Part shown: positions 5,891-22,640 of the stretch, one piece after another
Numbering within the stretch: position 1 is the stretch's first letter
Layout: every line of letters begins with the position of its first letter
IMG/VR virus record: IMGVR_UViG_3300035145_003716
Coordinates: 1-22,640 of that record
Length of the DNA: 22,640 nucleotides
DNA from: a virus
Direction: 5' to 3' (one strand)
Position numbers and translations under genes: made by a program
Notes under the pieces: model-generated
What the model was told of the DNA's origin: nothing
Seen by the model: only the letters and a program-made list of their open reading frames with translations
The model's database searches: none

Positions 5891-5902
5891 TTTAATCTCC
5901 TA

Positions 5903-7636
5903 TTATACGCCAGCGATTTCAGTGAAATCGACTCCGGTTCTTGTTGCTATAAAGTTCAATGAAATGAAGTTAATAGATCTTGATGGCTTGATAAAGATAT
6001 CAGCTACAAATCTATTAGCGTCAATTACCTGACCTGTGTTATTTGTTTCATCACAAACAACTTTAAAGTCAGTTACACCTCTTCTACCTTTTACGTCTCT
6101 TAAGAATGGTTCTAAAAGATTTCTGAATTGAGCTCTTGTAAATTCATCATTGAATTCAAAGAGTTGACCTTTAGCAGCTGTGCTAATTGCCTTCTCAATA
6201 ACAATAAATAATCTTCTAACATTAATTCTATCGAACGCACTTGGTTTGGCTAACAAAGTTTTGTCTCCAAATAACATAGTACCTTGTCCTGGGAAAGATA
6301 CTAATGGATTGATTCTTGCTTTATATAAAGAATCTCTATCAGCTTTCTTTGGATTTAGTGCTAACTTTGTTACACCTAGAAGTTGTCCTCTTGTTACACC
6401 TGCTGGGCTAAACCATGCATCTGCAACGTTATCTGTATTTGCACAAAGACCTGCTACAATACCTGATGCTCCAATCCATCTATATACGTCATTATACTTG
6501 TCGTATACATAGACAGCTGAAGAATCCATTGAAGCATATGAGCTTGATGGAATTGCTGTTGCGTTTCCACTTGCTTCTGTTCCATTTGCCCATGAAATAA
6601 CCTGTGCAACACTTCCGCCTGCAGCTGAATCTTCAACTGGTGCTGAAATGAATGCCATGCAATCTTTTCTTGCTTCTGCTATAGAAATAAGATGTCTTGC
6701 AATATCGCTTTCTCCATTTGCATCTGCTGCGGCAAACAATAAATTTACATCTACTGTTTCTGCATCCGCTAGTAAGTCAAATGATGATGTAATATCACCA
6801 TGTGCAGGAGCGTTATCACTTACACCGCCAGCTAATACAGCTGATACGATTGTATCAGAATCTGCAAAAGCTCTGCTAGCTACAAAGTTTGAACCTGCTG
6901 CTGAAGTTACTGGATCTGAACCAGCATCAAATGCTGAGTTATGACCACTCCACCATACATACTCGGATTGATTATTAATTACATCTTTATAGTAATTAGT
7001 TGTGCCATCTGATTTTTTACCTTGTGGTGATAAAGATAAGAATTGGAATACTTCTAGAACTGTTCCTTTAGTTCCACTCCATAATCCATCTTCATCAATC
7101 ACTGCTACGTGGATTTCATCATTTGTTGCACCTACAGCTGCTGCGCTTTCAGAAGTTCCTGGTGCTGCGTCAAAGCTGTCTTTAGGATCAGGTAAACTAC
7201 CTAGTCCTGTCCATGCTGCAAAAGATGTTGAATTTGAGCAAATATCTACTCTTAAGCTATCGCCTAAAGCGCCTGGATATTTAGCTACAAATGTTCCACT
7301 CAGTGAGCTAAGGGAATCATAATGGTCTTCGTTTTTAATTAAAAGTGCTGTGCCGTCTGTTGCATTTTTCATGTCAGACTTTTCAGCACGTACTACCTTA
7401 AGTGCGTTTCCATACTTTAAGAATGAAGCAGCAGTTAAGAAGTGTTTCGCCGTAACTGAGTCTGGAGCTCCAAAGATACTAGCTAATTCGTTTTCTGAAC
7501 TAACCGTAGTAACTTCTTCGACCGGACCCCAATTAAATGCACCTACGAATCCACCAATACTGGTAGAAACTGCAGGTACCACGTTCGTTGCGTCAATTTC
7601 TTTGACTTGAACGCCTGGTGATACTTGAAATGCCAT
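5903..7636 (-). CDS. 18: Contractile tail sheath protein gp18
   Basis: This sheath subunit wraps the gp19 tube and contracts on infection. It has 577 residues; T4 gp18 has 659, so the outer, variable domains are smaller here. The N-terminus SPGVQVKEID and the block SPAGVTRGQL (about 410-419) are characteristic. The C-terminal domain that carries the inter-subunit contacts is well preserved: RNLLEPFLRDVKGRRGVTDF..VCDE.NN (about 502-534) followed by VADIFIKPSRSINFI and a final strand. The central part (about 115-400) is rich in Ala, Ser, Gly and Asp and is the part expected on the virion surface. The ribosome site is GAGAGGA. It is the first gene of a two-gene unit behind the palindromic late promoter. 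Confidence 0.96.
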   Translation of the reverse strand: MAFQVSPGVQVKEIDATNVVPAVSTSIGGFVGAFNWGPVEEVTTVSSENELASIFGAPDSVTAKHFLTAASFLKYGNALKVVRAEKSDMKNATDGTALLIKNEDHYDSLSSLSGTFVAKYPGALGDSLRVDICSNSTSFAAWTGLGSLPDPKDSFDAAPGTSESAAAVGATNDEIHVAVIDEDGLWSGTKGTVLEVFQFLSLSPQGKKSDGTTNYYKDVINNQSEYVWWSGHNSAFDAGSDPVTSAAGSNFVASRAFADSDTIVSAVLAGGVSDNAPAHGDITSSFDLLADAETVDVNLLFAAADANGESDIARHLISIAEARKDCMAFISAPVEDSAAGGSVAQVISWANGTEASGNATAIPSSSYASMDSSAVYVYDKYNDVYRWIGASGIVAGLCANTDNVADAWFSPAGVTRGQLLGVTKLALNPKKADRDSLYKARINPLVSFPGQGTMLFGDKTLLAKPSAFDRINVRRLFIVIEKAISTAAKGQLFEFNDEFTRAQFRNLLEPFLRDVKGRRGVTDFKVVCDETNNTGQVIDANRFVADIFIKPSRSINFISLNFIATRTGVDFTEIAGV

Positions 7637-7698
7637 TTTTTCGTCCTCTCAATTTGAGTTAGTTAATATGTTTTCATAATACGGTTATATTCAATAGT

Positions 7699-7716
7699 AT
7701 TATTTATATAAATAAT
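7699..7716. repeat. Perfect 18-bp palindrome containing two opposed late boxes
   Basis: ATTATTTATATAAATAAT is identical on both strands. It holds TATAAATA on the minus strand (7701-7708) and TATAAATA on the plus strand (7707-7714), overlapping by two bases. It lies between the gp17 stop and the gp18 start. Confidence 0.8.
7701..7708 (-). promoter_or_regulatory. T4-type late promoter box TATAAATA before gp18
   Basis: Exact late box on the minus strand in the 85-base gap between gp17 and gp18, leaving a leader of roughly 60 bases. It lies within a perfect palindrome, so the same box also faces the 3' end of gp17 on the other strand. Confidence 0.85.
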
Positions 7717-7721
7717 AATTT

Positions 7722-9314
7722 CTAGAGATGATCTACCTCGAACCATACATTACCTTCACCGTCACCAACTCCCTCTTTTCTATTTCTACCATCTTCTATA
7801 ATACCAAATGGTAACATATCGTCTTGAATTGCCTTTAACTGTTCCTTATACATTAATTGTTTCATATCAATATTAGTCAATCCTGCAAATATATCAGTTG
7901 TAGTAAACCAACCAAATAATACTAAATTCATAACTAAGTCATCATGATTAGGTGCAACTGCCTCAAATGAAGCGCCTCTAGCAACAAATGTACACATTTC
8001 TGTAATAGTTTCAGCATCAACAATATGTAATTTCTTTGAAGCAATTAAATCTTTAAATGTAGAACAACCAATTCTTTTAACCCGTTTAGTCATAGTAGCA
8101 CCAATCGCATTAGCTTTAATTTGTGATTCTACAAACATATTTTCATATTCTAAATCGTAATATAATCCATTACAAACTATTGCTCCTTGATCATTACTTT
8201 CAACAATTGTATATGCGTCATTATACATTCTAGCATATTTGTATATAATATCAGGAAATAATAATGGTGATATGTTATTATCTCTAAATACACACACCTG
8301 TTTGAATGGATTTACAGATGTATCAATAATATTAAATGTACTATAATCTTGTCCACGGCCCTTAGATACATCGACTGTCATAACATAGTGATGTCCTTCT
8401 TTTGGGTCCTCATATTGAAATAAATTTTCTGACCATCGTATTGGATCAATGGCCTTTTGTGCTAATAAATCATTTGCCTCAATTAATGTATTACCTCTAC
8501 CATGGAAATTATTACCAAATTCTTGGTCGAACTGCAGCTCTGATGTATTGGCAATTGTTTCTTCTTTCCATTTTTCATCACGCCCTGGGACGTCCCACCA
8601 ATCTACTCTAAATGGTTTAAATTCATTTGTATTTGTTGTGGCACCTTCCCATAATTTGTGGTATATATTACCAACACCATTTGCTGTAGAAGCAATAATA
8701 ATTTTTGTATCTTTACCAGATGAAACAACCGGATATGTTGATGTGTAAAACTGAGCATCATTATCGATAAATGCAAACTCATCAAGAAATAATAAATTAA
8801 TTGATAAACCCCTGATAGAACTACCTGAGGTAGCTGCAGCAATAATTTTTGAGTTATTACTAAATTCTATAGAACCTTTATTTAATGCTTTACAACCTGG
8901 CTGCAAAAAGAATGGTAAGTTTTCTAATGCTAGTGTAATTCTACCTAGCATTTCTCTAGCCACTGCACCTTTGTTAGCTAGAATTGCAATAGTTTTTTCT
9001 GGATGGAAACATGCATACCATAATAAAAATACAACTGATGATATTGATTTACCACTTTGTCGACATGCTAAAACAATATTAAATCTGTTTTCATTGAAGT
9101 GATGAAACATTTCTTCTTGATATGGCCATAAATCAAATGGAACTAAACCTTTATCAAGTGAAATAACTTTTACATACGTACGAGCAAAGTATGCAGGGTC
9201 ATTCATACATTTTTTGTATTCAATTACCTGTTCTTTTGTAAATTCGCTTTCTACTCCATCCCTTTTTACATTAGGATTTCCTAGATAGCCATGCTCATTT
9301 ATTGCCTTCGTCAT
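7722..9314 (-). CDS. 17: Terminase large subunit gp17 (packaging ATPase and nuclease)
   Basis: This is the motor that drives DNA into the prohead through the portal and cuts the concatemer. It has 530 residues (T4 gp17 has 610). The ATPase half shows Walker A CRQSGKS (84-90), Walker B LLFLDE with Asp178 and the catalytic Glu179, and coupling motif ASTANG (208-213). The nuclease half has the RNase H-like acidic set: Asp315 in VDVSKGRGQDYS, Glu372 in VESNDQG, and Asp458/Asp459 in NHDDLVM, corresponding to T4 Asp401, Glu458 and Asp542. All key residues are present, so the enzyme looks intact. The start overlaps the end of gp16 by 20 bases, with AAGGA upstream. It is the last gene of the neck-terminase unit. 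Confidence 0.97.
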   Translation of the reverse strand: MTKAINEHGYLGNPNVKRDGVESEFTKEQVIEYKKCMNDPAYFARTYVKVISLDKGLVPFDLWPYQEEMFHHFNENRFNIVLACRQSGKSISSVVFLLWYACFHPEKTIAILANKGAVAREMLGRITLALENLPFFLQPGCKALNKGSIEFSNNSKIIAAATSGSSIRGLSINLLFLDEFAFIDNDAQFYTSTYPVVSSGKDTKIIIASTANGVGNIYHKLWEGATTNTNEFKPFRVDWWDVPGRDEKWKEETIANTSELQFDQEFGNNFHGRGNTLIEANDLLAQKAIDPIRWSENLFQYEDPKEGHHYVMTVDVSKGRGQDYSTFNIIDTSVNPFKQVCVFRDNNISPLLFPDIIYKYARMYNDAYTIVESNDQGAIVCNGLYYDLEYENMFVESQIKANAIGATMTKRVKRIGCSTFKDLIASKKLHIVDAETITEMCTFVARGASFEAVAPNHDDLVMNLVLFGWFTTTDIFAGLTNIDMKQLMYKEQLKAIQDDMLPFGIIEDGRNRKEGVGDGEGNVWFEVDHL

Positions 9315-9711
9315 CTATAATAATATCCTTACCATCATCAGCAGCTTTCATCAATAATCTTTGTAAATCAGTAGTACTTCCTACGAAAAGATTATTATTT
9401 GTCACTTCACGTTTTGTAGCTTCACCTGTTAAATCCTTTTTATTTTTTTGTAAAGCCATTAATTTTTCAGTAGTATCAGCAATATCTTTTATTGATCTAG
9501 ATAAAACTTCAAATGCTCTTGGATGCTCGGATTCACGAGCTAATTCAGCAAGTACATCAAGAGATAATGTACCTGTTCTAATTAAATCTTTATATGTCTT
9601 TCTAGAAAACTCATAATCATCTTTAATTTCAAGATCATCTTTAGTAATAGTTTTCTTTGCTGGCAAGTTTTTGCTCAGATTTTTATTAATCTTTTCTAAT
9701 TTATCACTCAT
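9295..9711 (-). CDS. 16: Terminase small subunit gp16
   Basis: This regulatory subunit recognises DNA for packaging and stimulates the gp17 ATPase; in T4 it forms rings. The product has 138 residues (T4 gp16 has 164). It is highly charged and helical, with a basic N-terminus (KINKNLSKNLPAKK), a conserved-looking core DDYEFSRKTYKDLIRTG..SLDVLAELARESEHPRAFEVLS (about 31-72), and a second helix IKDIADTTEKLMALQKNK. The Tyr-Glu-Phe-(Ala/Ser)-Arg opening and the HPRA.EV block recur in gp16 of T4-like phages. It directly precedes gp17 and overlaps it, as in T4. Confidence 0.92.
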   Translation of the reverse strand: MSDKLEKINKNLSKNLPAKKTITKDDLEIKDDYEFSRKTYKDLIRTGTLSLDVLAELARESEHPRAFEVLSRSIKDIADTTEKLMALQKNKKDLTGEATKREVTNNNLFVGSTTDLQRLLMKAADDGKDIIIDDEGNK

Positions 9712-9718
9712 AACATAC

Positions 9719-10465
9719 CTACGTTATACTTACATTTACTGTATAATTATCATCTTCATCTGCATTGGCTGGTGTAATTGTTAAATCCATGTTTTCTAAT
9801 ATTTCTGAACCACCAGCATCGTTATTAAAATCTATGTTAATTTCTTTAATTACACCCTGATCTTTTGTTGGTCCAAAGTATTTCATTTTCATATTAAAAT
9901 CAAGTTGATATATTAATGCTCTTCTTGTAATAAAATCACCTTCATAATCATCTTGTATAGCAACTGATTGTAATATAATAGGAACATCTTGTTTATATTG
10001 AAATCCATCAACAGGTGTAATTGTTACAGTATATTCTGGTTGAAAATATGGAAGTATTTGTTCCATAATTTGTAATCCATCATCTTGATTCTTAGCCAAA
10101 ATATATAATGACATACCAATATCATATGCAACAATATGATTTAATGTTTTCTTTTTAGTAGAATCTGTAGCATGATTTTCAATAACTTGATTTCTCTTTT
10201 GCATTTTTTGTGTAGAATCAAGTGTTAAATTTGTAATTTCAAAAGCAACTCTTGGTAATTTAAGAGCCATAGAAGCATCACTACCTGTTATAGCATCTAT
10301 TCTTGCTAAAAATTTTTGTTTAGGACCGTAAGCTAATGGAACTTTTATTTGATTTAGTACATTACCATTACCATCTTTTCTAATAACCTTTAAGTTATTA
10401 AATAAAGTACCAAAAATAGCTACTGCCTTTCTAGTTGTTGCGTGATAAAAATGACCGCCAAACAT
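9719..10465 (-). CDS. 15: Tail terminator / sheath stabiliser gp15
   Basis: gp15 caps the tail after tube and sheath polymerise and forms the connection to the neck (gp13-gp14) of the head. The protein has 248 residues (T4 gp15 has 272). Family marks are the N-terminal HFYHATTRKAVAIFGTLFNNL, KVPLAYGPKQKFLARI (about 43-58), LPR.AFEI (about 69-76), a VAYDIGMSLYILAKNQDDGLQI.EQILPYF segment (about 112-141), and a YEGDF..RRALIYQLDF.MK strand near residues 173-193. Its ATG overlaps the gp14 stop (TAATG), implying coupled translation with the neck protein. The start follows from that overlap and the HFYH N-terminus. Confidence 0.94.
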   Translation of the reverse strand: MFGGHFYHATTRKAVAIFGTLFNNLKVIRKDGNGNVLNQIKVPLAYGPKQKFLARIDAITGSDASMALKLPRVAFEITNLTLDSTQKMQKRNQVIENHATDSTKKKTLNHIVAYDIGMSLYILAKNQDDGLQIMEQILPYFQPEYTVTITPVDGFQYKQDVPIILQSVAIQDDYEGDFITRRALIYQLDFNMKMKYFGPTKDQGVIKEINIDFNNDAGGSEILENMDLTITPANADEDDNYTVNVSIT

Positions 10466-11394
10466 TAATAAGTCTCCGATGGATCACCAAACGGATTTGA
10501 TTCCGTAAAGTCTATAAAGTTATCACCTGCAACTTCAAATTCATAATTCATTGCTTGTTCATCTACAGGGAATGATGTACTATCTGTTACACCATGAACC
10601 TTAGTAATAAAACAGGTATTATTTGATTCACTACCAGTTAAACCCACTGTATTTGAAACAAAGAAATCTTTTGCTTCTGTACTACCTGTTACACCAATAC
10701 CAGAAACAGTTATACTAGCTGCGATGTCAGATGTTTTTGTAACGGTTTGAACTTCACCATATACACTTACCGCGGGATCGGTAGATATAACTTGTGTTAC
10801 AATTTCACCCTGGGTAAAGTGATTACCACCAGTTACGGTTACATCAATCTGTGTTTGTTGAGCATTAGTAATTTCTTTTGCATCAATTTCACTAACACCA
10901 GTTTCAAATTGTTCATCATTATATTCAAATAATGAACATTGCATTTTAAATACTGGCAAATTAGATAATTGATAGAATGGTTGTTCATCCTCAACAAACA
11001 TGATTTCAAAGAATGTATTTGACATTGGCATAAATAGTAGATCACCTTCTTGAGGTTTTGGATCCTCTAATGAATTATTCCAAAATCCTACTAAATTATT
11101 CCATTGTCTTCTTGAAATTATAAATGTAGCTTCATCTCTAATTTCTAGGCCAAACTTATTATATAAATCACCGGCTCCTTCGAAACCATCTACATTTTCA
11201 ATATATGCTTCAATAAGATAAGCATCATCAAACTTAGACCCAATGTCTTCGCCCATAATGTTATCCCTATTGACTAAGGTTCTAGGAATATAGTAAACGT
11301 CTTGTCCAAAAATCTTTAAAGATTCTATGATTAAGTCTTCGTATAGATTTTGCTCCGACTTTACTGCTTGTGAAAAATATACATTTCGTGGCAT
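10465..11394 (-). CDS. 14: Neck (head completion) protein gp14
   Basis: This neck protein closes the filled head together with gp13 and joins it to the tail. It has 309 residues, longer than T4 gp14 (256). The N-terminal half is strongly patterned like gp14 of marine T4-like phages: NVYFSQAVKSEQNLYEDLIIESLKIFGQDVYYIPRTLV (about 4-41), then FDDAYLIEAY.EN.DGFEG.GDLY.KFGLEIRDEATFI.SRRQW, then a FEIMFVEDEQPFYQLSNLPVFKMQCSLFEYNDE block. Between about residues 175 and 265 lies a Thr/Ser/Val-rich beta-type segment (VTVTGGNHFTQGEIV...), which accounts for the extra length and looks like an inserted domain. The protein ends with INPFGD-like DFTESNPFGDPSETY. It is preceded by gp13 (3-base gap) and overlaps gp15. 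Confidence 0.9.
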   Translation of the reverse strand: MPRNVYFSQAVKSEQNLYEDLIIESLKIFGQDVYYIPRTLVNRDNIMGEDIGSKFDDAYLIEAYIENVDGFEGAGDLYNKFGLEIRDEATFIISRRQWNNLVGFWNNSLEDPKPQEGDLLFMPMSNTFFEIMFVEDEQPFYQLSNLPVFKMQCSLFEYNDEQFETGVSEIDAKEITNAQQTQIDVTVTGGNHFTQGEIVTQVISTDPAVSVYGEVQTVTKTSDIAASITVSGIGVTGSTEAKDFFVSNTVGLTGSESNNTCFITKVHGVTDSTSFPVDEQAMNYEFEVAGDNFIDFTESNPFGDPSETY

Positions 11395-11397: not shown

Positions 11398-12150
11398 TTA
11401 CCCCGTGTAAAAGTCGACTGGTTGCTCCCAATTCAATCTAACTTCTTCTTCTAGTTTTTGTAGTTCTTCTCTAGCATCATCGAATAATTGTCGACCATTA
11501 AATGTTACACCACCAGGCATTTGCATACCTTCAAACTTTAATAAATTCATACCCCATTGCATTTTTAATAAAGCAGTTGCATATTTTTTTAAAAAGTAAT
11601 CGTTATAAACGTCTGTATATGTGTCTGGATTTAATATTCTATAACACTCTATAATTACGTAATCATTTAATTTTACTTCGTCATCCCAATTCATATCGAT
11701 TCTTAGTTGATTTTTATGCCTATCAAAACTAATATGCTTTTGATCATTATCGATAACCATATCTAATAATGATAACCATTGTTGTGTCATTTCGTATTCA
11801 ACTAATGATCCCATAAATCCAAGATTATAAACATCGTTTAAGTGCATTTGATATCTAACATCAAACATTGAATCACCAGTATTTTTATTATCTCTTAATG
11901 GAAATAATTGAACTACATCAGTAACCAAATCATTTAATGGTATATATTGATTATCAATATCGCTTTGTGTTATTTGATGTTTTAAATAAACTTTTTCTAT
12001 TGCATCAGCATGATAATGTTGATAAAACTGTAATGCTTCATCAATTCTATCACCAATCTGATCGTCATCTAAATTAATCTCAATAACAGGCGCGCCTAAT
12101 GCTCTTAAGCAATAATCTATTAATGTTGATCTGCTATTAGGCTTTGCCAT
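11398..12150 (-). CDS. 13: Neck (head completion) protein gp13
   Basis: gp13 assembles on the portal after packaging and, with gp14, forms the gate and collar to which the tail binds. The protein is 250 residues, shorter than T4 gp13 (309). The N-terminus SRSTLIDYCLRALGAPVIEIN.DDDQI.DRIDEALQFYQ (about 6-44) is typical of gp13 of marine T4-like phages. It is followed by VYLKHQIT..DIDNQYI and, in the middle, DVRYQM.LND.YNLG. Near the C-terminus is YFLKKYATALLK.QWG.NL.KFEGMQ.PGG..FNG..L. The order 13-14-15-16-17 matches T4. Its ribosome site (GGAG) lies inside the stop region of the preceding gene, three bases away. Confidence 0.9.
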   Translation of the reverse strand: MAKPNSRSTLIDYCLRALGAPVIEINLDDDQIGDRIDEALQFYQHYHADAIEKVYLKHQITQSDIDNQYIPLNDLVTDVVQLFPLRDNKNTGDSMFDVRYQMHLNDVYNLGFMGSLVEYEMTQQWLSLLDMVIDNDQKHISFDRHKNQLRIDMNWDDEVKLNDYVIIECYRILNPDTYTDVYNDYFLKKYATALLKMQWGMNLLKFEGMQMPGGVTFNGRQLFDDAREELQKLEEEVRLNWEQPVDFYTG

Positions 12151-12442: not shown

Positions 12443-12450
12443 TATTTATA
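12443..12450 (-). promoter_or_regulatory. T4-type late promoter box TATAAATA before the neck-terminase unit
   Basis: Exact late box on the minus strand, 19 bases before the ATG at 12423. It overlaps the stop codon of the upstream fibre gene (12446-12448), so box and coding end share bases. It would drive the 89-residue gene, 13, 14, 15, 16 and 17. Confidence 0.85.
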
Positions 12451-12757
12451 ACTCTTTATTCTTTAGTTGATCTTTGAGATCATCAATCTCTTGTTTTAAT
12501 TCTTTTATAGCTTCTACCAATACTGGAACTACAGCTTGATAATTAACTACCTTATGTGTTTCACCATGTCTATCACCAAGTGAATCAATATCATTTACTA
12601 CTTCAGGTAAAACTTCTTCAACTTCTTGTGCAATAAATCCTAGTTGGTCATTACCTTTATGCTCATCTTTCCAATCAAATTTTACACCTCTTAAGCTAAG
12701 TGTTTTATCTAAACAACTATCTAAATCTCTAATATTTTTCTTTAATCTAATATCTGA
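12446..12757 (-). other. Peptidase S74 (endosialidase-type) chaperone domain of the 1483-residue fibre
   Basis: Residues 1381-1483. Ser1381 and Lys1386 fit the S-D-x-x-x-K pattern in which Ser attacks the preceding bond after trimerisation. The conserved core R.VKFDWK, then LGFIAQEVEEVLPEVV, then VNYQAVVPVLVEAIKEL follows, and a heptad-like KELKQEIDDLKDQLKNK helix ends the protein. The predicted cut is just before Ser1381. Confidence 0.88.
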
Positions 12758-15700
12758 ACCTGTTTGTGTTGAATACGCAGTAATATCACCATCAGCATGA
12801 AAATCTTTATGATTCATTCTAAAGTTTATTACTCTACTAGTAGTTGCTGCAGCAGATGTATAGAAATATATATTGCCTGGCTCACCTGTATTAGTTTGTT
12901 TTCTAAACTCCATATAAGATGATCCAGTATTAGTTACTGCATTAAGACCAACTTGGTGCATTGTAGTACTATTGGCAGTAGTTACTCTTGAATCATCTGG
13001 TATAGACGCTGCTTTTAACTTACCACTACCATCAATACCATAATTGGTACTATCTACAAATAAGCCGCCATCGGCTCTAATATAGCGCGGTGTATAAATG
13101 TTTTTAGCGGTCTCTTGGTTAATGCGGAGCCAAGTTGTATCCTCACAACCAATTTCACCTACTCTAGTAGTGCCATTATAAAATTGTATATGGTCTGAAA
13201 CATTATTATCTGCTTTATATACTCTAATTTCTGTTTCACCACCACTTCCATCACCCACATCTAAACGAGCATTCAATTGTAATTCGCCAGTCATGGTTCC
13301 ACCAGTTAAAGGCAGTTTACCATCAAGTGCTGTTTGTAATCCGTCAACATTTGAGATTACATGATTATGTGAATCATCTGCAACTGTAACAGCAATTGAA
13401 GTTGTACCTGAACCAGATGCATCCCCAGTTAATGTAATTGTTTGGTTACCTGTCAAGTAGGTATTATTAGAATCAAACTTTGTAGTACCTGCAGCAACAA
13501 TTCTTACTCTATTGTCTGTAAATCTAATGTATGTATCTGTATCTGCTAAGTGATATAAGTATTGTGGAAAATATGCACCTGTTTCTGTTAATTCCATTGC
13601 TGATGGAGTATTAACAGCAGTTGTACCTGTATTTGACAATAACTCAAAAGTCATAGTAGCATTAGTAGTACTATCAGTATTTACTACAATACGTCCACAG
13701 TTATTTCCTTGTTCTGGTATACCATTAACGTGGTTAAATGTTACGTTTGCATTTCCATATCCATCATTGTGAGTAAGTGCTACACCACCACTACCTCGAC
13801 CTGCTTGGAAATAACCAGAAGTTGAATATGTTCCTGTGCCTGATGTTTTAGCTGTAAGGTTATTAAATGCATGAGTATGTGAATCATTAGAAACTGCAAC
13901 TGAAATAGATGCATTACCAGAACCATCCCATGATGTTGAACCTGAAACATCACCAGTTAGTGAGAGTGTCCTTGATGTTGTCCACTTATCTGCATTTGGG
14001 TGATATGTATCATGAAATACTCTATCCCATGTAGACATCCATGTACCATTTTGTTTCGACCTTAAATATAAATCATTACTATGAAAATCATGATATTGTT
14101 GAATACCCCAGCTAGTACTATCCCATCCAGCAGTTAAAATAATTCCATCACTAGCACCTGATGGATCATCACTACCAGTCGAAACATCCCATAATCTTAT
14201 ACTGGCTTTACTTGCTGCTAATAAATTAGATGCATCACCAGTATATCTAGAACCCACTGTTACATAATTACTATTTGTTGGAATTGTAGGAGTATTAGTA
14301 AAGTTATTGTAATTTAGATAATATGACCCCTCCTGAGCATCTAATTTGTCTGCATCTAAACCGCTGCCTGAGCCATCTGTGCTTGATGTCCATATTTCTC
14401 TCCAACCAGGAGAATAAGTAGAACCTTGGTCATTATAAACATATACTCCACCCGCAGAACCTCCAGTATTTGGTGCGATTGCTAATACTGTAATATTTCC
14501 TCTTGTACTATCATTGGAATTATCTGTCCAAGTAAGATGTGCCATACCAGCAGTTTCGGTAGGTCCAAAGCTTCCTGCGTCTGATAAATTGTCATTACTC
14601 GCATATGACCAAGATGTTTTAAATGCAGAAGTATATGAATCAAAAGCTCCATCACCTTCCATTTCTGAAATATACTGTGCAGTAGTCGCGGTGCTATTAC
14701 TTCCACCGCCTGCTGTAAATGCAGTAGTTCCTAATGATCTTAAATGATCAAGTGGAGTTTTACCATCTAAAGCGGCCTGTAATCCATCAACATTTGAAAT
14801 TACGTGATTGTGTGAATCATCTGCAACTACTATTGCATTATATGTACCAGAAACATCTCCACCAAATGTTGTACTAGTGTGAAGAACTGCAGAACCGTTA
14901 TTTGTATCTAAATATGTTCCACCTCCATCAAATATTCTTACTCTATTTGTATCAAATTTTATTGAAGTATCAGTATCGCCATCATGATAAATATAACCAC
15001 CTACTCTCATGTTATTAAAATACGCATGATCAGCGCCGTCAGTTGCACTTTGGAATGAACCAGGTTTTGTTCTATGTGTAAGTGTTGTACCTGTATATGA
15101 GTGTGAACTTACTGCAGTGACAATTGATTCTCTATCTAATGGTGTACACGTGTATTTAATACCAGCTTGTGATGTCTGTGTATCAGTTCTTTTAAATTCA
15201 ATAGCAAAATCTTCATTATTATTTGATGTAACTTTAATATCCATTTGTGTATAATTACCACTAATAGATGATACGAAAATATCTTGTGAATGATTTACAA
15301 GAATTTCTGCTTTAAAATTAACAACAACATTTCCTGTAGTACCATGTCCTGTAACTACAACGCATGAACCTAAGTTAGAACCATTTACATTAAATACAGT
15401 AACAAAATCTGTTGAAGATGTGGCCGTACTATTTGTTGCAACAGAGGCTTCTGCTCTCATTAAAGCTGTGTTATTGCCAATCAATAATTTAGCTGCACCA
15501 TCAAATTTCATTATATTATCTGCAGCATCATCAATTGCATATAATACAACGTTATTTGTACCAGTGAAAATAATACCTTCACCTGGATCATTGATTGTTA
15601 ATGCATTAACACCACTAATATTATAATTAGACCCCGTAATAGTATTACCACCCATATTAATATTACCAGTCATGGTTCCACCAGCTAGTGGTAGTTTATT

Positions 15701-16897
15701 TGTAATAGCAGTATTTGATGCTGTTATGTAACCTGCGCCATTTGTTAACTGATTATTGTTTGTTGGAATTGTAGTTGAGTTAAATGCATTGGAGCCAAGA
15801 TCTCTCTTACCAACAATATTACTTGTATTAATTGTTAATACTGTTGTTTCTGAACTCTGAGTTGAAATACTATTAAGTGTTAAATTATCAGCTGTAACTC
15901 TACCGCCAACTCGAGCACCACCAAATACCGCAAATACGTCACTACCATTTGTTTGGCCGTGATCACCGAATCTTGCGATATTACTAAATGAGTTTGCAGC
16001 ACCCTTTGATTGTCTTACATAAAGTGGTAAGTTTCCACTTCTATCTACTTTTGCAAATTCTGTTGTGTATTTTCCATCAGTATAATTACCTTCGAATCGC
16101 ATTATTTCTGCACCAGTAGTATCTGGAATTGACGCAGAATCTTGGTTAGTATTTTGATCTGATGAAGCTTGTCTTACTAATGCTCTACCATATATCAGTG
16201 CACCAGATGTACTTAAAGCAAGTCTTTCATCAGTTGATGATGTTCCAAGTACAAGTGTACTACTGCTACCCCAAATATCAGGAGTTACTAATCCACTACT
16301 ACTTCTTGTAAAACTTGCCGCATAAAATGAACTACCAGAAGATGCACTTGAAGATATTGGCCCAGATGTTGATATCCCTTTATTAAAGATCCATCTATCA
16401 CTTGATTCACCCCAAAGAATAGAAGCACTTGACCCATCAATAATAATACCTGAGTTACCAGAGTTAGCTTCAGTTTGGCCAACACCTAATGTAATTGTTT
16501 TATCCGTTACATCTAAATCTGTTACGTTATAAGAATTAATATCTCCTGTAATTGTTAAGTTACCTGTGACAGTTAAATCACCAACATTAGTTAGATCATT
16601 ACCACCAAGAGATAAATCAGTCGCCATAACAACACTACTGCCAGAAGCACCAAGTGTTAATGTGACACCTGATGTACCACGAATTTCTCCATCTTGTTCG
16701 AAGACGATATCTACATTATTTGTTCCATCTCCAATAAAAACATCTGACGAAGTGTCACCAATAGATATATCACCACCTGCGTTTGTGATAAGTAAATTAC
16801 CACTCGCATCAGTTTCTATTTTTGCATCGACATTCCCCGAATTATCTTTTATCTCCAGTTTCCTGGAGCCGGGGGTAATCAGTAAATCATCTGACAT
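12446..16897 (-). CDS. Large tail fibre protein with C-terminal S74 self-cleaving chaperone
   Basis: A 1483-residue fibre-type virion protein that probably contacts the host surface. The N-terminal part (1-160) is made of short glycine/aspartate-rich strands (GDISIGDTSSDVFIGDG, then DLTVTGNLTITGDI) that recur in marine phage fibres. The long middle is Ser/Thr/Asn/Gly-rich beta-type sequence with repeated modules: two copies of SHNHVISNVDGLQ.ALDGK, LPL.GGTMTG twice, and DGSGSGLDADKLD. The last 103 residues are an intramolecular chaperone of the endosialidase type: Ser1381-Asp-Ile-Arg-Leu-Lys1386 has the spacing of the Ser/Lys pair that cuts its own chain, followed by LGFIAQEVEEVLPEVV and a C-terminal coiled coil. 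It should form a trimer and release this piece. It has its own late promoter and a TTTGGAG ribosome site. The attachment point on the virion is unknown. Confidence 0.92.
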   Translation of the reverse strand: MSDDLLITPGSRKLEIKDNSGNVDAKIETDASGNLLITNAGGDISIGDTSSDVFIGDGTNNVDIVFEQDGEIRGTSGVTLTLGASGSSVVMATDLSLGGNDLTNVGDLTVTGNLTITGDINSYNVTDLDVTDKTITLGVGQTEANSGNSGIIIDGSSASILWGESSDRWIFNKGISTSGPISSSASSGSSFYAASFTRSSSGLVTPDIWGSSSTLVLGTSSTDERLALSTSGALIYGRALVRQASSDQNTNQDSASIPDTTGAEIMRFEGNYTDGKYTTEFAKVDRSGNLPLYVRQSKGAANSFSNIARFGDHGQTNGSDVFAVFGGARVGGRVTADNLTLNSISTQSSETTVLTINTSNIVGKRDLGSNAFNSTTIPTNNNQLTNGAGYITASNTAITNKLPLAGGTMTGNINMGGNTITGSNYNISGVNALTINDPGEGIIFTGTNNVVLYAIDDAADNIMKFDGAAKLLIGNNTALMRAEASVATNSTATSSTDFVTVFNVNGSNLGSCVVVTGHGTTGNVVVNFKAEILVNHSQDIFVSSISGNYTQMDIKVTSNNNEDFAIEFKRTDTQTSQAGIKYTCTPLDRESIVTAVSSHSYTGTTLTHRTKPGSFQSATDGADHAYFNNMRVGGYIYHDGDTDTSIKFDTNRVRIFDGGGTYLDTNNGSAVLHTSTTFGGDVSGTYNAIVVADDSHNHVISNVDGLQAALDGKTPLDHLRSLGTTAFTAGGGSNSTATTAQYISEMEGDGAFDSYTSAFKTSWSYASNDNLSDAGSFGPTETAGMAHLTWTDNSNDSTRGNITVLAIAPNTGGSAGGVYVYNDQGSTYSPGWREIWTSSTDGSGSGLDADKLDAQEGSYYLNYNNFTNTPTIPTNSNYVTVGSRYTGDASNLLAASKASIRLWDVSTGSDDPSGASDGIILTAGWDSTSWGIQQYHDFHSNDLYLRSKQNGTWMSTWDRVFHDTYHPNADKWTTSRTLSLTGDVSGSTSWDGSGNASISVAVSNDSHTHAFNNLTAKTSGTGTYSTSGYFQAGRGSGGVALTHNDGYGNANVTFNHVNGIPEQGNNCGRIVVNTDSTTNATMTFELLSNTGTTAVNTPSAMELTETGAYFPQYLYHLADTDTYIRFTDNRVRIVAAGTTKFDSNNTYLTGNQTITLTGDASGSGTTSIAVTVADDSHNHVISNVDGLQTALDGKLPLTGGTMTGELQLNARLDVGDGSGGETEIRVYKADNNVSDHIQFYNGTTRVGEIGCEDTTWLRINQETAKNIYTPRYIRADGGLFVDSTNYGIDGSGKLKAASIPDDSRVTTANSTTMHQVGLNAVTNTGSSYMEFRKQTNTGEPGNIYFYTSAAATTSRVINFRMNHKDFHADGDITAYSTQTGSDIRLKKNIRDLDSCLDKTLSLRGVKFDWKDEHKGNDQLGFIAQEVEEVLPEVVNDIDSLGDRHGETHKVVNYQAVVPVLVEAIKELKQEIDDLKDQLKNKEL
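13317..13385 (-). repeat. 69-bp imperfect direct repeat, copy A (fibre gene)
   Basis: Matches 14760-14828 with about 10 mismatches over 69 bases and no gap. Encodes the module SHNHVISNVDGLQTALDGK of the 1483-residue fibre. Most differences are silent. Confidence 0.85.
14341..14380 (-). repeat. DGSGSGLDADKLD fibre module, copy 1
   Basis: Encodes DGSGSGLDADKLD in the 1483-residue fibre. The same peptide occurs in the fibre at the right edge (20231-20273), with a diverged form at 20670-20715. This is a shared short module in two otherwise different fibres. Confidence 0.75.
14760..14828 (-). repeat. 69-bp imperfect direct repeat, copy B (fibre gene)
   Basis: Second copy of the module at 13317-13385, in the same frame, encoding SHNHVISNVDGLQAALDGK. 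The copies are about 1.4 kb apart and could recombine. Confidence 0.85.
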
Positions 16898-16931: not shown

Positions 16932-19421
16932 TTATACTAATCTTCCACCTAATCTTTTCTTTCTTCTAGTAGATGAATTATTAAATCCTCTTCTACTTTG
17001 ATGTTGTACCAAGAATCTCTTTTCTTTAATTCCAGTGCCTTTATCAATGTATATTTCAATTGGCTTTTGATGCCAATGTTCTAAATTATCAGCAGCATTT
17101 GCACTATCTGAATATATACTTACTGATATATAGTAGTCATATGTTGTAGGACTAATAGTTAACGTTTGTCTTTCATATGCTCCAATTGCACCTGAAGTAA
17201 ATTGAACAGATTCGTTGTGGCCTGCTGGATATGTATTAGCCGTTGTTTCAGATCTTTGATCGCTTGTTGTACTACCATCATAATGTCTACCGTTGTGATA
17301 TGAATTTGCGTGCTGTGCTCGTAAGTAAGGTCTGTTTCCACTAAATCCTGTACTTAACTTAATTTCTCCTGCTAAATAGACTGTCGCACCCGCGGGTACA
17401 TATACAGCTTCTGCTAGACCTGCTACGTTGTTAGTTGATGTGTCTCTAAATGTTTTCCACGCATTTTCATCATCGTCCCACTCTCTCCATATATAGCTAC
17501 CCCATTGAGCAGTCTCACCATCTTTCCAATTATGGTTTATTGAATACATAGATTGAGGATGATTACTTCTATCTGGCCTTAAATCTCCCAATTGAACTAT
17601 TTGAACACCTGGTGTTGGACTTGTATTTCCTGTAGTAGCATCCCAATCGTTACCGAAATAACTATTTAAATGAATTATATCTCCACCCGCTCCAATATAT
17701 GGCCACGATCTATACCAATTAAAATAGTTATTTTCCCAAATAATATTATGACTATTATAGAACGTATATAATGGTCTTTGTTCGTGATGTGTCCAATAAT
17801 TGTGTCTTACTTGTCCTGCAGAATTTCTATGATGATACCATAATGATCCATGGTCATCAGATCTTGAAAAATGATTATAACAAACAAACATTCTAGGTTC
17901 ATAAGCACCATCTTGCAAGAAAGTAGTATAGTGTGAACGCCAAGATATATTATTATTGAAGTTAAGATTATTTCCTGAAGAATATCTCCAAAAATTATGT
18001 TGTCCATCGTACGCTATGCAATTTCTCCAAGTGGTTTGATGAGCTTCTCTCATGTAAAACGCTGCATTACTAGATGAATTATTTGGCTTCCAAACACATC
18101 CTTCTACACCAGAAGCATAATTACCGTATGATGTTGTTTCATAACTCATATAGCCATTCCAACCAACGCCTCTGTTCCACGTAGTGTTTACAGCGTTTGA
18201 ACCAATACCATCAAATAATACATTTCTCCATCTTAATCTTCTATAATATGCATCGGTAGATGTCCAACGATTCATTATAATATAAACTCTTTGATTTGTA
18301 TCAGTTATATCAGTAGACCTTACCTGAGTATCTCTATCATATATTGTTACCCAGCCACCAGTTCTTCTAGTATTCCCTAAATTAGAGGTTAACGTAATTG
18401 TATTTCCTGAAATAGCAGAAATGGTATAAAGCATTTCATAATCCCAGTTAGTATCGTCATTATTATTTGCTTCTATAAGTATTCTTTTTCCAACAGCCAT
18501 ACCAGCTGTAGAAGCTACTGTAATTGTATTTGTGCCTGAGTTTGAATCCGCAGTTAATGGTGTTGCAATTTTTTGTACATCTGCTCCAGACTCATGATAA
18601 ATTTCTGTTCCCGTTCTATATACTGTTTCTCCTACTACACTTCCACTAATTGAACTATCACAGGTAATTCTGCCAGATGTTTTTCCAATAGAACTAATTG
18701 TTTTTATATTTCTATTTGAACCTGTGCCGAATATAATCTTTTGGCCTACTCTAAATATAGTAGAATCATTAACAAATATTTTACTTCCTGCGACACGTGT
18801 AATAGTTGTGTTTGGACTTACAAACCAACGAGGATATATTGTATTACCAGAAACATCATGAACGATCATACCTTCATCTTGATATCGATCATATTCCCAA
18901 TCAGCGATATCTTCTAAAGCTCTAAATATATTAATCCAATCTCCAGAAGCAAATCCAGTTCCTGATGCCACCGATACAGAGGTAGAATTTAATGCAACTG
19001 CACTTGATGTAGTAGTTTTTTGATTTGGATTTGTGCCATCAAACTCTACCCAATTTCTTTTTTGTGATCCAATTCGAAGTCTATGGTTATCTCCACTTAC
19101 ACCTTTCATTTCTAAAATAGCACCATTGTCCATTTTAAAATATGCACCAGTAGTTGAATCATTCTCTGTAAAATAATCATCGTTACCAGTAGAAATAACA
19201 TCAAGAATACCATTCATTCTTAATTTACCTGAACCAGTAATATGAAGTTTACCATTAATTATTGAATCATGATATCCATTCGTTACACGTCTATCGTCGT
19301 TAACTGTTACAATATGACCAGCTGCAATCGTAAATTGATCTCCATCTACAGGCACTGCACTACCACCCCACGTTGAAGTAGAGTTAAAATTTCCTGATTG
19401 TGATGATGTTCTTAATGCCAT
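16932..19421 (-). CDS. G8/beta-helix-like virion adhesin or tail spike (829 residues)
   Basis: This is probably a surface-exposed virion protein that binds or trims host glycans; the function is inferred from fold-like patterns. The first 45 residues (GNFNSTSTWGGSAVPVDGDQFTIAAGHIVTV in outline) resemble the start of G8 domains: a Trp, then Pro and a Gly-Asp before a strand with a conserved Gly. Repeated short strands follow (INGKLHITGSGKLRMNG, GAILEMKG). Residues about 140-360 have recurring ...SVSVASGTGFASGDWI / TITVASTAGMAVGKRILI units. Residues about 395-600 are rich in Trp, Tyr, His and Asn with repeats such as WRNCIAYDG, FNNNISWRS and IIWENNYFNWY, typical of a right-handed parallel beta-helix. 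The C-terminus (EHWHQKPIEIYIDKG, then RRGFNNSSTRRKKRLGGRLV) is strongly basic. Translation is probably coupled to the preceding 57-residue gene (TAATG). I see no S74 domain and no identifiable catalytic triad. Confidence 0.8.
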   Translation of the reverse strand: MALRTSSQSGNFNSTSTWGGSAVPVDGDQFTIAAGHIVTVNDDRRVTNGYHDSIINGKLHITGSGKLRMNGILDVISTGNDDYFTENDSTTGAYFKMDNGAILEMKGVSGDNHRLRIGSQKRNWVEFDGTNPNQKTTTSSAVALNSTSVSVASGTGFASGDWINIFRALEDIADWEYDRYQDEGMIVHDVSGNTIYPRWFVSPNTTITRVAGSKIFVNDSTIFRVGQKIIFGTGSNRNIKTISSIGKTSGRITCDSSISGSVVGETVYRTGTEIYHESGADVQKIATPLTADSNSGTNTITVASTAGMAVGKRILIEANNNDDTNWDYEMLYTISAISGNTITLTSNLGNTRRTGGWVTIYDRDTQVRSTDITDTNQRVYIIMNRWTSTDAYYRRLRWRNVLFDGIGSNAVNTTWNRGVGWNGYMSYETTSYGNYASGVEGCVWKPNNSSSNAAFYMREAHQTTWRNCIAYDGQHNFWRYSSGNNLNFNNNISWRSHYTTFLQDGAYEPRMFVCYNHFSRSDDHGSLWYHHRNSAGQVRHNYWTHHEQRPLYTFYNSHNIIWENNYFNWYRSWPYIGAGGDIIHLNSYFGNDWDATTGNTSPTPGVQIVQLGDLRPDRSNHPQSMYSINHNWKDGETAQWGSYIWREWDDDENAWKTFRDTSTNNVAGLAEAVYVPAGATVYLAGEIKLSTGFSGNRPYLRAQHANSYHNGRHYDGSTTSDQRSETTANTYPAGHNESVQFTSGAIGAYERQTLTISPTTYDYYISVSIYSDSANAADNLEHWHQKPIEIYIDKGTGIKEKRFLVQHQSRRGFNNSSTRRKKRLGGRLV

Positions 19422-19594
19422 TACTCAATTCCCTCTGGATAATCAAATTCTTCTTCAGTATCACAGTCAATTCTAAATAAAACTCGAGTTGTAGTATCTG
19501 ATGTTATTTCTGCGTGTAAAGAAATTTCATCACCCTCTTTATCCACAATTGTTAATTCACCAGTACTTTTATTATATTTTAAATTAGCTATCAT
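19421..19594 (-). CDS. Small unknown protein between fibre genes (57 residues)
   Basis: A short gene in the 162-base gap between the two fibre genes. It starts at ATG 19594, inside the last 11 bases of the upstream fibre gene, and ends with TAA that shares one base with the next ATG. The product runs from MIANLKYNKSTGELTIVDKE to EEEFDYPEGIE. It is acidic and beta-rich, with two hairpin-like strand pairs (ELTIVDKEGDEISLHAEI, TTTRVLFRIDCD), and has no signal or membrane segment. Tight overlap on both sides argues that it is translated in a coupled chain with the two fibres. An accessory or assembly role for a fibre is possible but unproven. I do not recognise the family. Confidence 0.75.
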   Translation of the reverse strand: MIANLKYNKSTGELTIVDKEGDEISLHAEITSDTTTRVLFRIDCDTEEEFDYPEGIE

Positions 19595-19901
19595 ATTCTA
19601 CCTCAAATCTCTCAACGTCTTTTCTTTCTGCCATGATATAATAAAAATATTCTGTATCATTTGATACCAATACTTTATTATCAGCAATGTCTTTTACATA
19701 TAACTCTGACGATTTTCCAATCGGAGTTAATTGTACTGTAATAGTATCTTCATGTACCAATCCAGTCCAATGATCGGGCAACTGAATTACAGAGCCCTTT
19801 GTTCTACCTCGTACATATACACCATTTTCTGGTCCCTCTAAAACTCCATATCTTAATCTCATTCCCTCTTTTGTAGGGTGCTCGATATCGAATGATTTTG
19901 T
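19584..19901 (-). other. Conserved-looking C-terminal module of the right-hand fibre (not S74)
   Basis: The last 105 residues begin with TKSFDIEHPTKEGMRLRYGV and contain LEGPENGVYVRGR, VIQLPDHWTGLV, ITVQLTPIG and a final YIMAERKDVERFEVEY. I recall this pattern as a recurring C-terminal end of marine phage and cyanophage fibre proteins. It lacks the Ser/Lys pair of S74, so it is a different end module occupying the same place. Confidence 0.65.
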
Positions 19902-22640
19902 TGTTGCACTTAAATTACCACCTGTATCAACACTAAATCCACCAGAAGTAACAAGACCATTTGTGCCATCATATGTTAAAGTTTTTCTACCTGCCCAAGA
20001 ACTTGACCAGTTATCTGGACTTACATTTACTTGGAAACCAGTATCAGCATTTACATATAAATACTCACCAGTTTGTGAAGTAGCTACTGAATTAGATTCA
20101 CCAACATTAATAATAACTTCTTGTCCAGTATTACTTCTAATTTCATGTAAATTAATTCTATCACTAAATGTTATAACACCACTTGCAGTATCTGTGGCAT
20201 CACTTCTTAGGAATGAAGCACCTTCTACGCCGTCTAGTTTATCTGCATCAAGACCAGAGCCTGATCCATCGTTTTCATTACCCCATGCTGCTCTCCAAGC
20301 AGTAAATGTTCCATTCCACATAATACGTGAATATACAATATCGTGTTGATGAGGCCAAAATTCTTGTAAGACATAAGTTCCTGTACCAGAACTTGAACCT
20401 GATGCAGCTTGCCAGTTTGTAACTCTTAATATACCCCAACCATAAGAATCACCTGCAGCAGTGTTTGTTGGTCCGTTTGCTACTGTATCATTTGTGTCTG
20501 ACCAGTTATTTACTGCATATGTACCTGTTGTTAAATAGTTATTAAAGTCTTCAGAAGATGAATCAATTGTATCTCTTCGATATGAATCAAAGATATTATC
20601 TGGGAATCTAGCAGATGGTATTGTTCCACTTGATAGATTACTTGCATTTGTATAGTATGAACCATGTTGATCGTCAAGTAAATCCGCATTTAAACCCGAA
20701 GAAGCACCATCATTGCCTTCATGCCAAATTAGATACGCATTTGATGATGTTCCATCTCTCCACCTAAGTTGATTTTCTGTATCTGTTGCATATAAGATAC
20801 CAATTTGTCCACCATCATTTGACCATGTTATAGAAGGAGCATTTGAGGCATGTTCTCTATGTATTTCTAAAGCATTACCAAAAGTATCATGTTCAATTCT
20901 AACACCCATTGCTGTGCCAGAATCTACTGTTAATGTCCCTGTAACTTCTGAAGAAGTACCTAAAGTAATTAATGTACCAGAATCTGTAATATTTGAATCA
21001 TCTAAAATAGATCCGTTAAACTTAACAACTTTATTTGTAACAATATTTGTTACACCAATTTGAGTACCACTAATACTTCCTGCAAAGGTTGCATTACCTG
21101 CAGCAGTTAAACTCATTGCTGTTACGTTATCAGCAGTGTTTACAAATTGGAATCCATTACCACTTACACCTGTTGTACCTTTCCATACTCCAGCATAGTT
21201 TCTAAATGAACTACCACTACCAGTATAAACATTTGCAAATGATGTAACACCAGCATCATTTAAATGCATTCTTCGTGCTCCACCAGTTATAAAATGAAGT
21301 TCGTCTTGGCTACCAGAATTCGTTACACTCATTCCTGTAGTTGTATGACCAACAAAAGTAATAGATGGATCAGTTGTTGAATTACTATCAGCTGCGTAAA
21401 TGTCACCATAAAAAGTAGCATTACCAGATGTATCTAATCTAAATTTATTTTGAGCGGCATATGATGATTGAGATCCATCAGCCGCATATCCAATATTAAA
21501 CCCACTTTGGTTATAACCACTTCCAATAAACCATTCTCTATTACTTGCCCCACTAGCACTATTAACATTGTCCTGAATTTTAATACCAGCTCCACGACCT
21601 TCATAGCCTTTTAGTCTAAATAGCGCGGTCATTGCTGGAGAGCCCCCACCGTCAGCAATATCAATTGTCATATTACCAGTTGTTGTTAGTGGCGCTGAAA
21701 GTGTTGATCCTGAATTAAGTAAATCTAATATATCAGAGCCGGCAGTTGTAAACTTTAAACGTCCTGCAGAAGCAAGATACATACCAGTATCTTGATCACT
21801 ATGGAATGTATAGCCCGGAGCACTTACTGTTCCATCTGCTGATCTAAATATTCTACCTGATGTAACAGCAATTGTTCCACCAACATAATAGTGACCGTCA
21901 GCTCTTATATTGCCATTAACTTGTAATTTTTGGGTAGGATTAGTTTCATTAATACCAACATCTCCGTCAGGAGCAATTGTCATTCTTAAAGATCCGCCAG
22001 ATGAATTATTATTTGTATAAAATTCTAAATTACCTGCAGCAGCATTAGCACCCGTATCAGTAGTACCAGTTGTTGAGGCAATACCAGCACTTCTCCAAAC
22101 AAATTGATTACTATTACTAGTTCCAGCAGCAGGATAGTCTGAACTACCAAACCACAATGAACCTGTATATCCCTGTGCACCCGTTTGGACAGCACCTGTA
22201 CTAATAACTATATGAGCTTCATTACCCAAATCTACACCAGATGCATCATCAACAATTTCATGAATATGCATTGATGCGGTTGATGATGGAAATTCACTTT
22301 CAGTAGTACTTACATCTCCAATAAAAGCTTTACCAGCTACATGAAGCTTTGATACTGGTGAATCAGTTCCAATACCAACATTACCGGTTGCACCTTTAAT
22401 TCTCATTCTCTCTGTTGGAACGGCAGTGCCACCAATTTGTGGAGAGAAAATTATATCTCTTGCAGTAGCAGATCCAGTATTACTGCCTTGTGTAAAGAAT
22501 TCTAAATTATTATTCCAAACTGCAACATGTCCACCACTACTATCATGGAAAAATTTTGCAGACCAGTTCATATCGGTGCTACCCATTTGAACTTGATTAC
22601 CATTTAATGAAATTTGCGGGCTACCACCAGCATCTACTGC
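19584..22640 (-). CDS. Large tail fibre protein, 5' end outside the window
   Basis: The frame is open from the right edge through 18 codons before the first in-window ATG (22586), so the gene starts outside and at least 1018 residues are present here. The ATG at 22586 has no ribosome site and lies inside normal fibre sequence (SPQISLNGNQVQ precedes it), so it is internal. Content is typical beta-structured fibre: GNVGIGTDSPVSKLHVAGKAFIGD, DGDVGINETNPTQKLQVNGNI, RSADGTVSAPGYTFHSDQDTGMYL, then LIWHEGNDGASSGLNADLLDDQHGSYY and DGSGSGLDADKLDGVEG. Such GIGT..P..KLHV motifs usually introduce chaperone-tailed fibre regions. The final 105 residues form a distinct end module without S74 residues. No late box lies between this gene and the 829-residue gene, so the two and the 57-residue gene probably share an upstream promoter. 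Confidence 0.9.
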   Translation of the reverse strand, partial: AVDAGGSPQISLNGNQVQMGSTDMNWSAKFFHDSSGGHVAVWNNNLEFFTQGSNTGSATARDIIFSPQIGGTAVPTERMRIKGATGNVGIGTDSPVSKLHVAGKAFIGDVSTTESEFPSSTASMHIHEIVDDASGVDLGNEAHIVISTGAVQTGAQGYTGSLWFGSSDYPAAGTSNSNQFVWRSAGIASTTGTTDTGANAAAGNLEFYTNNNSSGGSLRMTIAPDGDVGINETNPTQKLQVNGNIRADGHYYVGGTIAVTSGRIFRSADGTVSAPGYTFHSDQDTGMYLASAGRLKFTTAGSDILDLLNSGSTLSAPLTTTGNMTIDIADGGGSPAMTALFRLKGYEGRGAGIKIQDNVNSASGASNREWFIGSGYNQSGFNIGYAADGSQSSYAAQNKFRLDTSGNATFYGDIYAADSNSTTDPSITFVGHTTTGMSVTNSGSQDELHFITGGARRMHLNDAGVTSFANVYTGSGSSFRNYAGVWKGTTGVSGNGFQFVNTADNVTAMSLTAAGNATFAGSISGTQIGVTNIVTNKVVKFNGSILDDSNITDSGTLITLGTSSEVTGTLTVDSGTAMGVRIEHDTFGNALEIHREHASNAPSITWSNDGGQIGILYATDTENQLRWRDGTSSNAYLIWHEGNDGASSGLNADLLDDQHGSYYTNASNLSSGTIPSARFPDNIFDSYRRDTIDSSSEDFNNYLTTGTYAVNNWSDTNDTVANGPTNTAAGDSYGWGILRVTNWQAASGSSSGTGTYVLQEFWPHQHDIVYSRIMWNGTFTAWRAAWGNENDGSGSGLDADKLDGVEGASFLRSDATDTASGVITFSDRINLHEIRSNTGQEVIINVGESNSVATSQTGEYLYVNADTGFQVNVSPDNWSSSWAGRKTLTYDGTNGLVTSGGFSVDTGGNLSATTKSFDIEHPTKEGMRLRYGVLEGPENGVYVRGRTKGSVIQLPDHWTGLVHEDTITVQLTPIGKSSELYVKDIADNKVLVSNDTEYFYYIMAERKDVERFEVEYDS
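20231..20273 (-). repeat. DGSGSGLDADKLD fibre module, copy 2
   Basis: Encodes DGSGSGLDADKLDGVEG in the right-hand fibre; identical at peptide level to the copy at 14341-14380 over 13 residues, with several silent differences. Confidence 0.75.
20670..20715 (-). repeat. Diverged fibre module (GNDGASSGLNADLLDDQHG), copy 3
   Basis: Related to the two DGSGSGLDADKLD copies: same length and the GL-x-AD-x-LD core, followed as at copy 1 by GSYY. Confidence 0.65.

What the first reader, a model, noticed from the sequence alone, without database searches (positions are those of the whole stretch)
19584..19901. Second big fibre ends in a different C-terminal module
Two large fibres from the same cluster share internal modules but end differently: one with S74, the other with a 105-residue HPTKEGxRLRYGVLEGPENGVYVRG-type module. 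This placement suggests an alternative folding, trimerisation or tip module that, as far as I know, has no assigned biochemical function. Similar ends recur in marine phage fibres, so it could be a widespread unnamed domain.
Basis: inference. Interest (0 to 1): 0.6.

Follow-up and report, generated by a model that had tools for sequence, protein, structure and literature searches.

The report
Widespread unnamed phage-fibre end cap
One of this marine phage's large fibres ends in a roughly 105-residue cap with no name, no known function and no matching solved structure; the same cap closes hundreds of otherwise unrelated viral fibres and some bacterial and archaeal proteins, and most likely helps three fibre chains fold and stay together at the tip.

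Summary
The fibre at 19584-22640(-) ends in a 105-aa module (19587-19901) and its neighbour (12446-16897) ends in S74. The two share only short repeats.

The module has no Pfam, NCBIfam or PDB-sequence match. Two PHROGs of unknown function match it. A confident AlphaFold2 model (pLDDT 91) is almost all beta, and its best PDB Foldseek hit has E=0.55.

It occurs in at least 590 IMG/VR stretches. Of 163 distinct copies, 125 end within 10 aa of the C-terminus. None shares a protein with S74. At 60-70% cap identity the preceding 250 aa are near background identity, as with S74. It also occurs in bacterial and archaeal proteins, a few times internally.

It lacks S74's Ser/Asp/Lys motif, so S74-type self-cleavage is unlikely.

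Module-ended fibres are followed directly by a LamG-like lectin or G8-like gene in 79/161 cases, against 2/72 for S74-ended fibres. This is a T2 gp37-gp38-like layout, but lineage-restricted.

Best reading: a probably retained trimerisation and folding cap, possibly a docking platform for the adjacent adhesin. Trimerisation, retention and docking are inferred, not shown.

The parts
19587..19901 (-). C-terminal module, 105 aa (KSFDIEHPTKEGMRLRYGVLEGPENGVYVRG...RKDVERFEVEYDS)
   Evidence: PHROG 17490/28536; F11, P16, E29, P31 and R100 invariant over 73 diverse members; AF2 model pLDDT 91, nearly all beta
19584..22640 (-). large fibre that carries the module; frame open to the window end (1018 aa seen; L001 homologue 1352 aa)
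   Evidence: PHROG tail fibre matches upstream of the module; 68% identical to the L001 fibre
20208..20297 (-). 30-aa repeat shared with the S74-ended fibre (WRAAWGNENDGSGSGLDADKLDGVEGASFL)
   Evidence: 63% identity to P0003 aa 832-861
19421..19594 (-). 57-aa ORF whose start overlaps the fibre's last codons and stop
   Evidence: a similar ORF sits at the same place in L001; no relative in the other 161 downstream genes
16932..19421 (-). 829-aa G8-like / beta-helix type protein, the first large gene after the module-ended fibre
   Evidence: (weak G8, E=0.01), 70, 101: belongs to a family that follows module-ended fibres in other phages
12446..16897 (-). second large fibre, 1483 aa, S74-ended
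12596..12757 (-). Peptidase_S74 (chaperone of endosialidase) domain of the second fibre
   Evidence: PF13884, E=3.8e-18; catalytic S-D..K motif present (GSDIRLKKN)

Best explanation
The module is a self-contained, almost all-beta C-terminal cap. It most likely trimerises, sets the register in which the fibre (or collagen-like) shaft folds from its C-terminal end, and remains on the fibre as the end plate of the tip. In one branch of marine phages the lectin-like or G8-like adhesin encoded immediately downstream probably docks on or near that capped end, an arrangement that works like T2/S16 gp37 with gp38. Shown by computation: an autonomous conserved domain, C-terminal position, independence from the shaft, mutual exclusion with S74, absence of the S74 motif, and linkage to adhesin genes. 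Inferred: trimerisation, folding role, retention and docking.
For: Position: 125 of 163 distinct modules end within 10 aa of the C-terminus and 145 within 30; in the named phage records read out, the tails after the match are short. Cap on unrelated shafts: pairs with caps 60-70% identical have upstream 250 aa only 19% identical, against 15% for shuffled sequence; S74-ended fibres show the same pattern (23% at 60-70% cap identity). Trimeric setting: the cap closes Gly-X-Y (collagen-like) shafts, e.g. a 735-kb phage with a very long run of GTS/GTT triplets, and L055 and L068 with GXY ending 45-47 aa before it; GXY is enriched in module proteins, 15/152 against 19/614, p=0.001. Fold: pLDDT 91.1, pTM 0.80, eight strands. 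Not S74-like cleavage: S74 Ser 99%, Asp 100%, Lys 100% conserved, whereas the module's boundary Ser is 68% with N/T/G substitutes. Adhesin linkage: LamG or G8 gene directly downstream in 79/161 against 2/72 for S74-ended fibres, and still 8/28 against 1/31 clusters at 60% identity, p=0.01. Host-independent role: the same conserved residues in phages of Synechococcus, Prochlorococcus, Flavobacterium, Arthrobacter and Agrobacterium and in cellular proteins.
Against: No trimer was modelled; only a monomer prediction was possible. The GXY enrichment partly reflects that module proteins are fibres (S74-ended fibres also carry GXY). The adhesin linkage is not significant when clusters are drawn at 50% identity (3/12 against 1/13, p=0.32), so it belongs to particular lineages. 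Some cellular proteins continue 60-370 aa beyond the module, so a terminal position is not essential everywhere.
Confidence: 0.6

Rival explanations
1. The module is a transient intramolecular chaperone, like S74 in function though not in sequence: it folds and trimerises the shaft and is then cleaved off, so it is absent from the mature fibre.
For: Same position as S74, same cap-on-variable-shaft pattern, never together with S74. A second, beta-type intramolecular chaperone is known from phage phi29 (cited in PMC4690869).
Against: No invariant Ser at the N-terminal boundary and no S74 catalytic motif. In several cellular proteins and in phage L197 more protein follows the module, and in L099 peptidoglycan-binding domains follow it, which cleavage would release.
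Confidence: 0.2
2. The module is itself the receptor-binding tip (knob), for instance a carbohydrate-binding beta domain.
For: Terminal position on a fibre; all-beta fold; lectin genes next door.
Against: It is the most conserved rather than the most variable part of the fibre, with the same conserved residues across phages of unrelated hosts and in cellular proteins. No fold match to a lectin in PDB. Separate lectin-like genes are present to do the binding.
Confidence: 0.12
3. The module is an enzyme or metal-binding domain (invariant E29, R100 and near-invariant H15, K9, D102).
For: Conserved polar residues.
Against: The conserved set is rich in structural residues (P16, P31, P49, G39, F11) and no fold or family match to any enzyme was found.
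Confidence: 0.08

Closest known systems
Peptidase_S74 / endosialidase-type intramolecular chaperone (PF13884; phage K1F endosialidase, T5 pb1)
   Same: C-terminal, about 100 aa, conserved cap on rapidly changing fibre shafts; an S74-ended fibre lies in the same cluster here.
   Different: No profile match, no catalytic Ser/Asp/Lys motif, all-beta instead of a trimeric coiled-coil with a mixed alpha/beta body (T5 chaperone, PMC4690869).
Phage_fiber_C (PfC, PF06820), C-terminal trimerisation domain of prophage collagen-like proteins (PMC3368898)
   Same: C-terminal globular domain closing a Gly-X-Y or fibre shaft; PfC was shown to trimerise by SEC/MALLS.
   Different: No Pfam match to PF06820 in any of 73 members; trimerisation not measured here.
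T2/S16 gp37-gp38 tip (PMC12892980)
   Same: Fibre gene paired with a separate receptor-binding protein at its tip; here a lectin-like or G8-like gene lies immediately downstream of the module-ended fibre.
   Different: Downstream proteins are LamG-like (PF13385) or G8-like, with no polyglycine-helix gp38 detected; binding to the tip not shown.
PHROG 17490 and 28536 (unknown function)
   Same: Same domain: 72 of 73 diverse members, including cellular ones, match.
   Different: These are clusters of whole proteins without function; the five short motif strings tried were found in no paper held.

Membership tests
Peptidase_S74 | profile match to PF13884 | tested here: not met
   no match for the module; the neighbouring fibre P0003 matches
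Peptidase_S74 | conserved catalytic Ser-Asp...Lys at the domain start | tested here: not met
   S74 set 99/100/100%; module position 10 Ser 68%, Asn 15%, Thr 9%
Peptidase_S74 | C-terminal cap on diverse fibre shafts | tested here: met
Peptidase_S74 | helical coiled-coil core | tested here: not met
   eight strands and one 4-residue helix in the monomer model
Peptidase_S74 | autoproteolytic release | not testable with these tools
   needs recombinant protein or virion mass spectrometry
Phage_fiber_C (PfC) | profile match to PF06820 | tested here: not met
   none of 73 members
Phage_fiber_C (PfC) | C-terminal to a collagen-like or fibre shaft | tested here: met
   (14 of 163 distinct proteins with at least 6 GXY repeats)
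Phage_fiber_C (PfC) | forms trimers on its own | not testable with these tools
   only monomer prediction available
gp37-gp38 type fibre tip | adhesin gene immediately downstream of the fibre gene | tested here: met
   LamG/G8-like gene in 79/161 against 2/72 after S74 fibres; lineage-restricted
gp37-gp38 type fibre tip | downstream protein is a gp38 adhesin | tested here: not met
   Laminin_G_3 for L059 and no significant match for P0002; only these and L022 were scanned
PHROG 17490/28536 module family | profile match | tested here: met
   E=3e-36 and 2e-31; 72 of 73 members

The most novel reading that the evidence does not exclude
A previously undescribed fold: an all-beta trimerisation cap shared by phages, bacteria and archaea, used in phages as an alternative to S74, and in marine myoviruses serving as a universal docking plate on which interchangeable lectin-type adhesins, encoded in tandem downstream, are mounted.
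Probability: 0.25. Interest if true: 0.75.

Novelty: new variant of a known kind. Interest (0 to 1): 0.5.

Why it matters
Phage fibre ends decide how fibres fold and what they carry at the tip, and only a few C-terminal cap types are understood. This is a common, unnamed one, frequent in marine and cyanobacterial T4-like phages, without a solved structure. If it is a retained trimer cap that accepts separate lectins, it would give a simple rule for finding receptor-binding genes in marine phages (look directly downstream of the cap) and a small trimerisation tag for protein work. Its presence in secreted bacterial and archaeal proteins suggests the same device is used outside viruses.

Tried and rejected
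PDB by sequence with single sequences and two profiles: only chance-level matches. PDB by fold with two models: best E 0.2 and 0.55, TM below 0.4, discarded. Motif strings in the literature: none. Whether the 57-aa ORF after the fibre is a general chaperone: no relative in 161 other downstream genes, only in the close relative L001. Searching with the shaft next to the module for swapped ends in related phages: only one related contig came back, so swaps could not be shown directly; the cap-versus-shaft identity comparison was used instead. Identifying the Micromonospora neighbourhood by Pfam: no matches. Virion proteomics: one cyanophage proteome paper was read (PMC10665884) but gives protein-level, not end-resolved, data; the Baltic Flavobacterium phage paper (PMC7077304) has no proteomics of immuto.

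Full report
What is there. The window is the structural region of a T4-like myovirus: major head protein, scaffold, protease, portal, tail tube, sheath, terminase, sheath stabiliser and head-closure proteins lie at 184-11394, all on the minus strand. Upstream of the neck gene phrog_211 (11398-12150) lies a fibre cluster: a fibre ending in S74 (12446-16897), a G8-like protein (16932-19421), a 57-aa ORF (19421-19594) and a fibre ending in the reported module (19584-22640). The last is cut by the window end: the frame is open to 22640, and the homologue in L001 has 1352 aa.

The observation. The module is exactly where it was reported: 105 residues at 19587-19901. The neighbouring fibre has a clear S74 (E=3.8e-18). 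The two fibres share a 30-residue repeat at 63% identity and a weaker stretch, nothing more.

Identity of the module. No Pfam, NCBIfam or PDB sequence match was found. Two PHROGs of unknown function match at E=3e-36 and 2e-31. tblastn finds it in 49 annotated phage records, mostly Synechococcus phages, plus Prochlorococcus, Flavobacterium and Arthrobacter phages. IMG/VR holds more than 590 stretches. A scan of genome contigs found it in Micromonospora, Planctomycetota, Omnitrophota, WOR-1 and a Woesearchaeota archaeon, several with signal-peptide-like N-termini (signal peptides judged by eye). A bacterial copy used as query finds the phage copies back at E down to 5e-10. Of 73 diverse members, cellular ones included, 72 match the same two PHROGs. 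By genome survey, 11 of 149 sampled genomes of the planctomycete phylum and 4 of 61 of the Micromonospora genus carry it. A more distant branch includes P-SSM2, S-TIM5/54 and Agrobacterium phage OLIVR5; the P-SSM2 protein (Q58M60) was found independently by fold comparison.

Position and architecture. Over 199 loci there are 163 distinct modules: 125 end within 10 aa of the C-terminus, 20 at 11-30, 9 at 31-60, 6 at 61-150 and 3 beyond 150. The last group includes a Micromonospora protein followed by peptidoglycan-binding domains. No ORF carries both the module and S74 (0 of 218 and 122). Where two fibres have caps 60-70% identical, their preceding 250 residues are 19% identical against a shuffled background of 15%; S74-ended fibres behave alike, 23% at the same cap identity. 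The window fibre and its L001 homologue show it on a small scale: the module is 99% identical, the whole fibre 68%. So the module is a transferable cap, not a co-evolving part of a receptor-binding tip.

Trimeric setting. Module proteins carry Gly-X-Y runs more often than other large ORFs of the same loci (15/152 against 19/614, p=0.001); the comparison partly reflects that they are fibres. The clearest case is a 735-kb phage in which a very long run of GTS/GTT triplets is closed by this module. The analogy with PfC, a C-terminal domain shown to trimerise in prophage collagens (PMC3368898), is functional; no PF06820 match exists.

Structure. With a diverse 73-sequence alignment AlphaFold2 gives pLDDT 91.1 and pTM 0.80 for the monomer, eight strands and a single short helix. 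F11, P16, E29, P31 and R100 are invariant in the 73-sequence alignment, H15, K9 and T66 nearly so.

Cleavage. In the S74 copies collected here the catalytic Ser, the following Asp and the Lys are 99-100% conserved. The module has no such motif: its boundary Ser is replaced in about a third of members. Proteins in which functional domains follow the module also speak against removal as a rule. Retention is therefore the better guess, but not shown.

Downstream genes. The gene directly after a module-ended fibre is LamG-like in 61 cases and G8-like in 18 of 161; after S74-ended fibres it is 2 of 72 (p=6e-14). One LamG member is confirmed by Pfam (PF13385, E=6e-17). LamG genes form tandem arrays, the first following the module fibre. 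The sequences are not independent: collapsed to clusters at 60% cap identity the contrast is 8/28 against 1/31 (p=0.01), and at 50% it is no longer significant. In the window the G8-like protein P0002 holds this place. The layout resembles T2-type gp37-gp38, where a separate receptor-binding protein sits on the fibre tip (PMC12892980), and the lectin-like genes that vary between marine phages (PMC3909814).

Conclusion. The module is a widespread, unnamed C-terminal cap, an alternative to S74, most likely a trimerisation and folding domain that stays on the fibre. Trimerisation, retention and adhesin docking are inferences that need the experiments listed.

Noticed in passing
L001-L080, L106-L186 downstream of module-ended fibres: Tandem arrays of LamG-like lectin genes begin directly after module-ended fibres in marine phages (61 follow the module gene, 106 follow another LamG gene).
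   Followed up: partly
window 16932-19421: 829-aa G8-like / beta-helix type protein (weak G8 and K1-lyase Rider matches) of a family that often follows module-ended fibres.
   Followed up: partly
window 19421-19594: 57-aa ORF whose start overlaps the fibre's stop (ATGATAGCTAA); a similar ORF in L001 only. Possibly a small fibre-associated protein.
   Followed up: partly
L101, L104, L202, L203, L204: In several Kyanoviridae cyanophages, 225-305-aa proteins ending in the module sit beside the gp5 baseplate hub and spike genes, a different place from the large fibres.
   Followed up: no
L091-L094, L097, L099, L100: Micromonospora proteins carry the module; in L091 and L099 they share an N-terminal stretch (MARPRYYDxxYLRAxDLTQA). 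The neighbourhood of L094 has no Pfam match.
   Followed up: partly
L197 3528-10259: Three consecutive proteins each carry a divergent module followed by about 100-155 aa.
   Followed up: no
L199 5731-7566: In P-SSM2 a protein annotated as containing PF00082 (subtilase) lies two genes after the module-bearing tail fibre.
   Followed up: no
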